Made by a program: the position numbers and the translations under genes. The notes below the pieces were generated by a model. The model did no database searches, was not told the origin of the DNA, and saw only the letters and a list, made by a program, of their open reading frames with translations. From the NCBI RefSeq assembly GCF_009296185.1, contig NZ_WBJR01000001.1, positions 248,001 through 312,000 on the forward strand: 64,000 nt of DNA. The letters are read 5' to 3'. Each line of letters starts with the position of its first letter. The first letter of the stretch is position 1. Shown here in pieces: positions 48,820-51,564 of the stretch. This DNA comes from Hydrogenovibrio sp. JE_KL2. Its GTDB lineage: Bacteria; Pseudomonadota; Gammaproteobacteria; Thiomicrospirales; Thiomicrospiraceae.

Positions 48820-48896
48820 GCGCCCGTAGCTCAATTGGATAGAGTACTCGGCTACGAACCGAGCGGTTAGGGGTTCGACTCCCTTCGGGCGCGCCA
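48820..48896 (+). tRNA. tRNA-Arg (anticodon ACG), apparent integration site
   Basis: Acceptor GCGCCCG pairs with CGGGCGC, then G and encoded CCA. The anticodon arm CTCGG-CTACGAA-CCGAG gives ACG. The D-arm AGCTCAATTGGAT and T-arm GGGGTTCGACTCCC are normal. An imperfect copy of its 3' 35 nt recurs at 51531-51564, suggesting that this tRNA served as attachment site for the island in between. Confidence 0.96.
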
Positions 48897-48899
48897 TTT
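48865..48899 (+). repeat. Proximal att-like repeat (3' end of tRNA-Arg)
   Basis: The T-arm and acceptor end of tRNA-Arg, beginning GGTTAGGGG and ending GCGCCATTT. It matches 51531-51564 with a few substitutions and a 1-nt gap. It would be the intact attachment-site half that regenerates the tRNA after integration. Confidence 0.6.
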
Positions 48900-49101: not shown

Positions 49102-51149
<2,048 letters not shown>

Positions 51150-51183
51150 CTTAAGGTCTTATGTTAGGAGAGCTTTGAGAAGT

Positions 51184-51310
51184 AAAAAGTTCAATGTTCA
51201 ACGTTAAGGAAACCTTAACTCTTTCAATTATCTTGAACTAACACAAAGTGTTATCCGATTAGTGTCATTTGCAGTGCAAACGTTTCAGTTTCCATCTCGA
51301 AAAGATGTAA
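51184..51310 (-). ncRNA. Candidate structured RNA upstream of the SLATT-RT operon
   Basis: Five short perfect stems in 120 bp: AGTTCAA/TTGAACT (51188-51194 with 51233-51239) enclosing GTTAAGG-AAA-CCTTAAC (51203-51219); TAACAC-AAA-GTGTTA (51239-51253); TTTGC-AGT-GCAAA (51268-51280); CATCT-CGAAA-AGATG (51293-51307). On the reverse strand the last stem runs into T5, a terminator-like end about 35 bp before the SLATT ATG. RT-based defence genes often carry such an RNA as template or cofactor. Strand and function are inferred. Confidence 0.45.
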
Positions 51311-51530
51311 CTAACTCTTCTCAAAGCAATATTGAGTATAAAACGCATTCTTTAAAATTCAAGAAGAAACTGCCTTTAAAGTTAAGTTATATTGAGTTGT
51401 TTTTGTATTGAAATCTTTCCCGACAAAATGTTTCTAAATCACATATAAACAGGGGTAAGAAGGAGGTGACGGAAAAATATAAGTTAACCTATTGAATTTT
51501 AATGATTGTTTTTTCAGTCATGAATCAAGG
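51311..51530. other. AT-rich island margin without genes
   Basis: No open frame of note on either strand. AGAAGGAGGTGAC near 51460-51472 resembles a strong ribosome site but is followed by no useful frame, so it may be debris of a lost gene. Probably also contains the promoter for the SLATT-RT operon on the reverse strand. Confidence 0.4.
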
Positions 51531-51564
51531 GGTTAGGGGGGGGCTCCCTTCAAGCGTGCCATTT
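51531..51564 (+). repeat. Decayed copy of the tRNA-Arg 3' end (att-like)
   Basis: GGTTA, then a G8 run, then CTCCCTTCAAGCGTGCCATTT. The tRNA has GGTTA-GGGGTTCGA-CTCCCTTCGGGCGCGCCATTT. The flanks agree except for three substitutions; the centre is altered and 1 nt shorter. Together with 48865-48899 it brackets a 2.6-kb island in the orientation expected for tRNA 3'-end integration. Confidence 0.65.

What the first reader, a model, noticed from the sequence alone, without database searches (positions are those of the whole stretch)
51184..51310. Run of perfect hairpins upstream of the SLATT-RT operon: candidate RT-associated RNA
Five perfect short stems occur within 120 bp of a gene-free, AT-rich stretch, one nested inside another. 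Reverse-strand transcription would end in a T5 tract just before the SLATT gene. Defence RTs and retrons commonly use a structured non-coding RNA encoded next to the RT.
Basis: partly seen in the sequence, partly recalled or inferred. Interest (0 to 1): 0.6.

Follow-up and report, generated by a model that had tools for sequence, protein, structure and literature searches.

The report
Template RNA of antiviral reverse transcriptase
The row of hairpins is the conserved guide RNA of a recently described bacterial antivirus system (DRT10) whose enzyme, like telomerase, is thought to copy a short piece of RNA over and over into repetitive DNA; it is a sound new example of a known kind.

Summary
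Exactly five perfect hairpins lie in 51184-51310, against a mean of 1.1 in shuffles (16 of 2000 reach five). The neighbouring genes are a UG17 reverse transcriptase (PADLOC E 9e-134) and its SLATT partner (2.6e-46), that is the DRT10 defence system (PMC12632851), which has a 137-nt ncRNA at this position templating tandem-repeat DNA. A covariance model built from six relatives without the window finds 51171-51328 as the best hit of the 64 kb (E 4e-5). All 32 modelled pairs show compensatory change. The template loop holds UUGAAC-A-UUGAAC, predicting a (TGTTCAA)n product. Relative L129 carries the published Eco3 template in the same place. The T5 tract lies inside the template loop and is no terminator. 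New member of a known kind. Oddity: a perfect (TCCTGT)21 array inside the RT gene, in 1 of 73 RT genes examined. The cassette lies between tRNA-Arg and a degenerate copy of its 3' end.

The parts
51171..51328 (-). DRT10 ncRNA (covariance-model boundaries)
   Evidence: Best hit of model R2 in the 64 kb, E 4e-5, window not in the seed; fold z -4.5
51317..51327 (-). 5' arm of the closing stem, pairs with 51172-51182
   Evidence: MFE fold; helix 1 covaries
51172..51182 (-). 3' arm of the closing stem
51285..51314 (-). Stem-loop 1 (larger than in the six seed relatives; an insertion relative to the model)
   Evidence: MFE fold; not aligned to the model helix
51266..51282 (-). Stem-loop 2
51258..51262 (-). 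Single-stranded CUAAU, shared by many relatives
   Evidence: alignments
51239..51253 (-). Stem-loop 3
51223..51237 (-). Stem-loop 4 (not in the covariance model)
51203..51219 (-). Stem-loop 5, proposed 5' template boundary
   Evidence: role by analogy with PMC12632851
51195..51201 (-). Predicted template A-B (UUGAACA), cDNA unit TGTTCAA
51189..51194 (-). Predicted re-annealing segment A' (UUGAAC)
51335..51362 (-). Promoter-like TTGAAT-16-TATACT ending 7 nt before the RNA's first base
   Evidence: such matches are not enriched over shuffles
50559..51149 (-). SLATT_5 membrane protein, 196 aa
   Evidence: PF18160 1.8e-21; RTasSLATT 2.6e-46
49102..50562 (-). UG17/DRT10 reverse transcriptase, 486 aa, YVDD, last residue Ser
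   Evidence: RT_UG17 9e-134
49921..50046 (.). Perfect (TCCTGT)21 array in the RT gene, encoding 42 residues of alternating Gly/Thr (residues 173-214)
48820..48896 (+). tRNA-Arg (anticodon ACG); its 3' part (48856-48899) is the likely left attachment copy
51522..51564 (+). Degenerate copy of the tRNA-Arg 3' end, likely right attachment copy

Best explanation
51171-51328 (minus strand) is the ncRNA of a three-part DRT10 phage-defence cassette (ncRNA, SLATT protein, UG17 RT). The RNA folds into a closed central stem carrying five stem-loops and is bound by the RT. Stem-loop 5 sets the 5' edge of the template. The RT primes DNA on its own C-terminal serine, copies A-B (UUGAACA), lets go, re-anneals on A' (UUGAAC) and repeats, making single-stranded (TGTTCAA)n, which is thought to control the membrane protein SLATT. 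Shown here: gene identities, conserved covarying structure, position, the A-B-A' pattern, the terminal Ser. Inferred from published Eco3DRT10 work: RNA binding, priming, repeat synthesis, defence and control of SLATT (the last is speculative in the paper too).
For: RT_UG17 9e-134 and RTasSLATT 2.6e-46. Model R2 without the window in its seed: E 4e-5, next best 0.72 in 64 kb. 32 of 32 pairs compensated, 407 of 435 cells paired in 14 sequences. In 13 loci outside the seed the best hit of each lies just before SLATT, or before the RT in L048 which has no SLATT match. Template-loop repeat of 6 nt, P 0.0145 (base shuffle) / 0.05 (dinucleotide shuffle); over 19 loops 12 of 2000 dinucleotide shuffles reach the summed repeat length. 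L129 carries the published Eco3 template (CAAT-GATTC-CAAT) right after the last stem-loop of the same architecture. RT ends in Ser, as do most relatives. Source of the mechanism: PMC12632851.
Against: No expression data. R2 finds only 25 of 71 loci at E <= 0.1 with default filters (several of those loci begin at or near the RT and lack upstream DNA). It reaches the Eco3-like RNA only weakly: L129 E 0.34, and in L106 the expected place is not the top hit. R1 missed the window with default filters. Stem-loop 1 of the window is an insertion relative to the model. The A-B-A' is not significant in many single loops. The 42-residue Gly-Thr insert in the RT could have weakened or inactivated this copy.
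Confidence: 0.95

Rival explanations
1. The RNA is a DRT10 template but the repeat register or unit differs from (TGTTCAA)n, for instance copying of the U5 tract as in DRT9.
For: The loop also holds UUUUU 3' of A'; DRT9 copies a poly-U tract (PMC12632851). The single-loop A-B-A' statistic is modest (P 0.05 with dinucleotide shuffles).
Against: The RT is UG17 by a wide margin (Drt9 1.6e-14 against 9e-134). The 6-nt A/A' is tied for the longest of the 19 loops and stands directly after stem-loop 5.
Confidence: 0.15
2. It is a retron msr-msd RNA, copied into a branched RNA-DNA molecule.
For: A structured RNA beside a bacterial RT; a weak match of the RT to retron St85 RT (9.7e-10, 38 bits, cut-off 235).
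Against: RT family is UG17. No retron RNA among the Rfam matches up to E 5. The RNA matches the family found before SLATT in UG17 loci.
Confidence: 0.01
3. Chance hairpins, a terminator or decayed repeats in an AT-rich intergenic stretch.
For: Short stems arise easily in AT-rich DNA; the quoted interval alone has z -1.0, and with arms of at least 6 the count is not unusual (37 of 300 shuffles).
Against: Structure and boundaries are shared with compensatory change across loci from several phyla; z -4.5 for the full element; the one terminator-like match is on the other strand.
Confidence: 0.01

Closest known systems
DRT10 / UG17 (Eco1-3DRT10, PMC12632851)
   Same: UG17 RT, SLATT partner, ncRNA directly before SLATT, closed central stem with small stem-loops, template just 3' of the last one, A-B-A' pattern, C-terminal Ser.
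   Different: Predicted unit is 7 nt with a one-base B (Eco3: 9 nt); larger stem-loop 1; a 42-residue Gly-Thr insert before the GVPQG motif of the RT.
DRT9
   Same: Related RT fold (PDB matches 9vma, 9nlx); the DRT10 paper says its ncRNA resembles the DRT9 ncRNA.
   Different: RT belongs to UG17, not Drt9; SLATT partner; A-B-A' template rather than poly-U.
DRT3 (Drt3a)
   Same: Second-best PADLOC family for the RT (2.1e-31); ncRNA-templated repeats (PMC13174585, passages).
   Different: DRT3 uses two RTs and an ACACAC template.
Telomerase
   Same: Mechanism by analogy (template plus alignment segment), as argued in PMC12632851.
   Different: Not a member; no phylogeny was run here.

Membership tests
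DRT10 (UG17) | UG17-clade RT with catalytic YVDD | tested here: met
   RT_UG17 9e-134; YVDD at residue 254
DRT10 (UG17) | Adjacent SLATT gene | tested here: met
   RTasSLATT 2.6e-46, SLATT_5
DRT10 (UG17) | Structured ncRNA directly upstream of SLATT | tested here: met
   R2 E 4e-5; covariation. Expression not tested
DRT10 (UG17) | A-B-A' repeat in the loop 3' of the last stem-loop | tested here: met
   UUGAAC-A-UUGAAC, P 0.0145 / 0.05
DRT10 (UG17) | C-terminal Ser or Tyr primer | tested here: met
   RT ends in Ser; of 72 relatives 57 Ser and 9 Tyr, of which 3 Ser are early stops. Priming itself not tested
DRT10 (UG17) | RT-dependent tandem-repeat cDNA and phage defence | not testable with these tools
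   needs experiment
Retron | Retron-clade RT | tested here: not met
   best family UG17; retron St85 model 38 bits, cut-off 235
Retron | msr-msd RNA | tested here: inconclusive
   no retron RNA among Rfam matches up to E 5; most retron RNAs may not be in Rfam
DRT9 | Drt9-clade RT | tested here: not met
   Drt9 1.6e-14 against UG17 9e-134

The most novel reading that the evidence does not exclude
The RT gene of this telomerase-like, repeat-making system itself contains a perfect 21-copy hexanucleotide array, and its unit (TGTTCC on the cDNA strand) shares TGTTC with the predicted product unit TGTTCAA. Boldest reading: the array was seeded by capture of the system's own (or an ancestral template's) repeat DNA and now acts as an in-frame, length-variable linker that tunes the RT. 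The sharing is not significant (P about 0.09), and replication slippage explains the array as well.
Probability: 0.03. Interest if true: 0.8.

Novelty: new member of a known kind. Interest (0 to 1): 0.36.

Why it matters
It shows that the telomerase-like DRT10 layout (ncRNA, SLATT, RT) can be recognised from raw sequence, and gives a concrete product prediction, (TGTTCAA)n, for a member with a one-base B segment. Its RT bears a natural 42-residue low-complexity insert between palm motifs A and B, a ready test of how much insertion a DRT10 RT tolerates. The cassette lies at a tRNA-Arg site whose cargo differs between relatives.

Tried and rejected
Retron msr-msd, other Rfam families, terminator and chance: see rivals.

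The MAFFT alignment of 18 ncRNAs did not align the stems and was not used for counts. Model R1 (4 sequences) missed the window with default filters and found it with filters off in a 5-kb stretch, E 0.0012. R2 was built from 6 sequences, not the window. Covariation was counted on A8, the matches of 14 chosen loci; L002, L007, L008, L009, L047 and L048 were left out (size limit or low score), and the 52 viral loci had not been fetched yet. One spurious row (L014, reverse strand) is counted and dropped. Six of the 14 rows are R2's seed. The larger search (default filters) hit 25 of 71 loci at E <= 0.1; its alignment was not counted.

Template occlusion (a complement of the template elsewhere in the ncRNA): 14 ncRNAs, none beyond chance (lowest P 0.076; window 0.144). 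A link between the RT-gene array and the template unit: not significant (P about 0.09). Phage records: no match among 50,697.

Full report
WHAT IS THERE. The minus strand carries, in order, a structured intergenic element, a SLATT gene (51149-50559) and a reverse-transcriptase gene (50562-49102) whose ATG overlaps the SLATT stop. The five perfect hairpins are real: 5 observed, mean 1.1 in 2000 dinucleotide shuffles, 16 reaching five; of 6388 windows in the 64 kb, 7 reach five and 5 of these are this place. With arms of at least 6 the count is not unusual. The quoted interval misses the closing stem and folds poorly against shuffles (z -1.0); 51172-51327 gives z -4.5 (1 of 200 as good) and 51160-51330 z -4.9 (0 of 200).

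IDENTITY OF THE GENES. PADLOC: RT_UG17 9e-134, RTasSLATT 2.6e-46. Pfam: RVT_1 2.5e-18, SLATT_5 1.8e-21. PMC8934634 (passages) reports that 82% of UG17 RTs lie beside SLATT_5. PMC12632851 (a preprint; parts 1-4 of 8 of the text and the first of two parts of the figure legends read) renames UG17 as DRT10. It reports a 137-nt ncRNA upstream of SLATT with a central stem and small stem-loops, a template next to SL5 with an A-B-A' pattern for re-annealing, priming from a C-terminal Ser (probably Tyr in Eco1), and that RT, SLATT and ncRNA are needed for defence.

RELATED LOCI. A scan of genome contigs gave 32 loci, 14 matching at least 233 of the 269 query residues. Plasmids gave 8 records, phage records none, viral contigs 7 and then 73 loci, of which L091-L142 (52) match over most of the RT. 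SLATT_5 was found in 3 of 93 near genomes, the own included and one below the cut-off. The RT profile matched 3 of 369 genomes of the class at E <= 1e-40, the own included; one of the three (L055) looks to me like a group II intron type RT. So the system is rare around this host.

THE RNA FAMILY. The DNA before SLATT was folded in 17 relatives. In 16 I could delimit a closing stem around four to six hairpins; L045 was unclear. R2, built from L003, L014, L004, L044, L010 and L043, finds the window at 51328-51171 as the top hit of 64 kb, E 4e-5, the next being 0.72. In 13 loci outside the seed the best hit of each lies just before SLATT (L048, without a SLATT match, before the RT): nine have E < 0.06, four are weak (L002 0.2, L048 0.2, L047 0.7, L009 6.9). 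On 14 sequences 407 of 435 cells pair (93.6%; shuffled mean 245 cells, none of 1000 above 272). All 32 pairs have changes on both sides, and sliding the partners by 1-3 columns drops pairing to 34-50% (one search is the tool's count with one spurious extra row). The window row pairs in 26 of 27 cells; its stem-loop 1 is an insertion relative to the model and is not counted. The eight rows outside the seed, the window included, pair in 228 of 244 cells. The alignment was fitted to the model, which favours the structure.

LIMITS OF THE MODEL. With default filters R2 hits 25 of 71 loci at E <= 0.1; several of the others begin at or near the RT and hold no upstream DNA. With filters off on eight loci of the Eco3-like side, L133, L127, L104 and L112 match at the expected place (4.5e-6 to 0.053). 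L129 matches weakly (E 0.34) but as its own best hit, at 1601-1735, 135 nt. L126 and L111 are best at the expected place but at E 1.6 and 3.7, and in L106 it is not the top hit. So the link from the window to the experimentally known Eco3 RNA runs through intermediates and through the RT family, not through one strong match.

TEMPLATE. The loop behind SL5 reads GUUGAACAUUGAACUUUUUAC. Its longest direct repeat is UUGAAC with one A between, a 7-nt unit, predicting (TGTTCAA)n. P is 0.0145 against base shuffles and 0.05 against dinucleotide shuffles. Over 19 loops the summed repeat length is 80 against 69.9 (sd 3.5), 12 of 2000 dinucleotide shuffles as high; many single loops are not significant. 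Of 52 viral loci one, L129, holds a 12-mer of the published Eco3 template. There CAAT-GATTC-CAAT stands a few bases after the last stem-loop inside the same architecture. Its A-B is the reverse complement of the published repeat GAATCATTG.

PROMOTER. TTGAAT-16-TATACT ends at 51335, 7 nt before the RNA's first base. Such matches are no more common here than in shuffles (7 against 11.1), so only its position speaks for it.

THE RT AND ITS ARRAY. The RT has YVDD and ends in Ser. Of 72 related RTs 57 end in Ser, 9 in Tyr, 3 in Gly and 3 in Lys; three of the Ser group (L098, L140, L141) stop early and prove nothing. A 126-bp perfect array, (TCCTGT)21, encodes residues 173-214, alternating Gly and Thr, just before GVPQG. 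At TRF score 40 or more no other of 73 RT genes (some taken as the matched range only) has an array of units up to 9 nt above 3.3 copies. The own genome has no second array of this unit (19 overlapping matches, all here). In a 246-kb sample of the genome that includes the window it is the only array of units up to 10 nt above 5 copies; longer-unit arrays of similar score lie at a contig end. AlphaFold2 gives pLDDT 86.5, pTM 0.81, with only residues 179-213 below 50 as a segment. Fold search puts group II intron RTs and DRT9 first. The enzyme is therefore probably still folded. Slippage is the simple explanation; a link to the system's own product is not supported (P about 0.09).

SETTING. The cassette lies between tRNA-Arg (ACG) and a degenerate copy of its 3' end (48856-48899 and 51522-51564; alignment score 36, unrelated places 23-25). 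Of ten other genomes of the genus two hold the downstream GGDEF gene at E <= 1e-60. In G003 two other genes lie between the same flanks, without a match in PADLOC or Pfam and none above cut-off in NCBIfam. In G010 serS and the GGDEF gene are about 37 kb apart. This looks like a tRNA hotspot with exchangeable cargo.

VERDICT. This is a new member with a specific product prediction and one odd feature in the RT. In four searches of the held library I saw no description of an array in a UG17 RT, but I read only the listings and the passages and sections named above.

Noticed in passing
49921-50046: Perfect (TCCTGT)21 array in the RT gene, 42 residues of alternating Gly/Thr before the GVPQG motif; unique among 73 UG17 RT genes examined and predicted to be disordered.
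   Followed up: partly
48820-48899 and 51522-51564: The SLATT-RT cassette lies between tRNA-Arg and a degenerate copy of its 3' end; related genomes carry other cargo at the same site.
   Followed up: partly
L056:15512-17613: Two genes at the same tRNA-Arg site in genome G003 (441 and 240 aa) with no Pfam or PADLOC match and none above cut-off in NCBIfam: possible unknown defence cargo.
   Followed up: partly
L011 and L012: In these two loci from Clostridia-type genomes the SLATT-like gene lies behind the RT instead of before it; where their ncRNA lies was not worked out.
   Followed up: no
L048:1737-1853: Rhodococcus plasmid UG17-like RT without a SLATT match has a weak ncRNA-model hit about 590 nt before the RT (E 0.2).
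   Followed up: no
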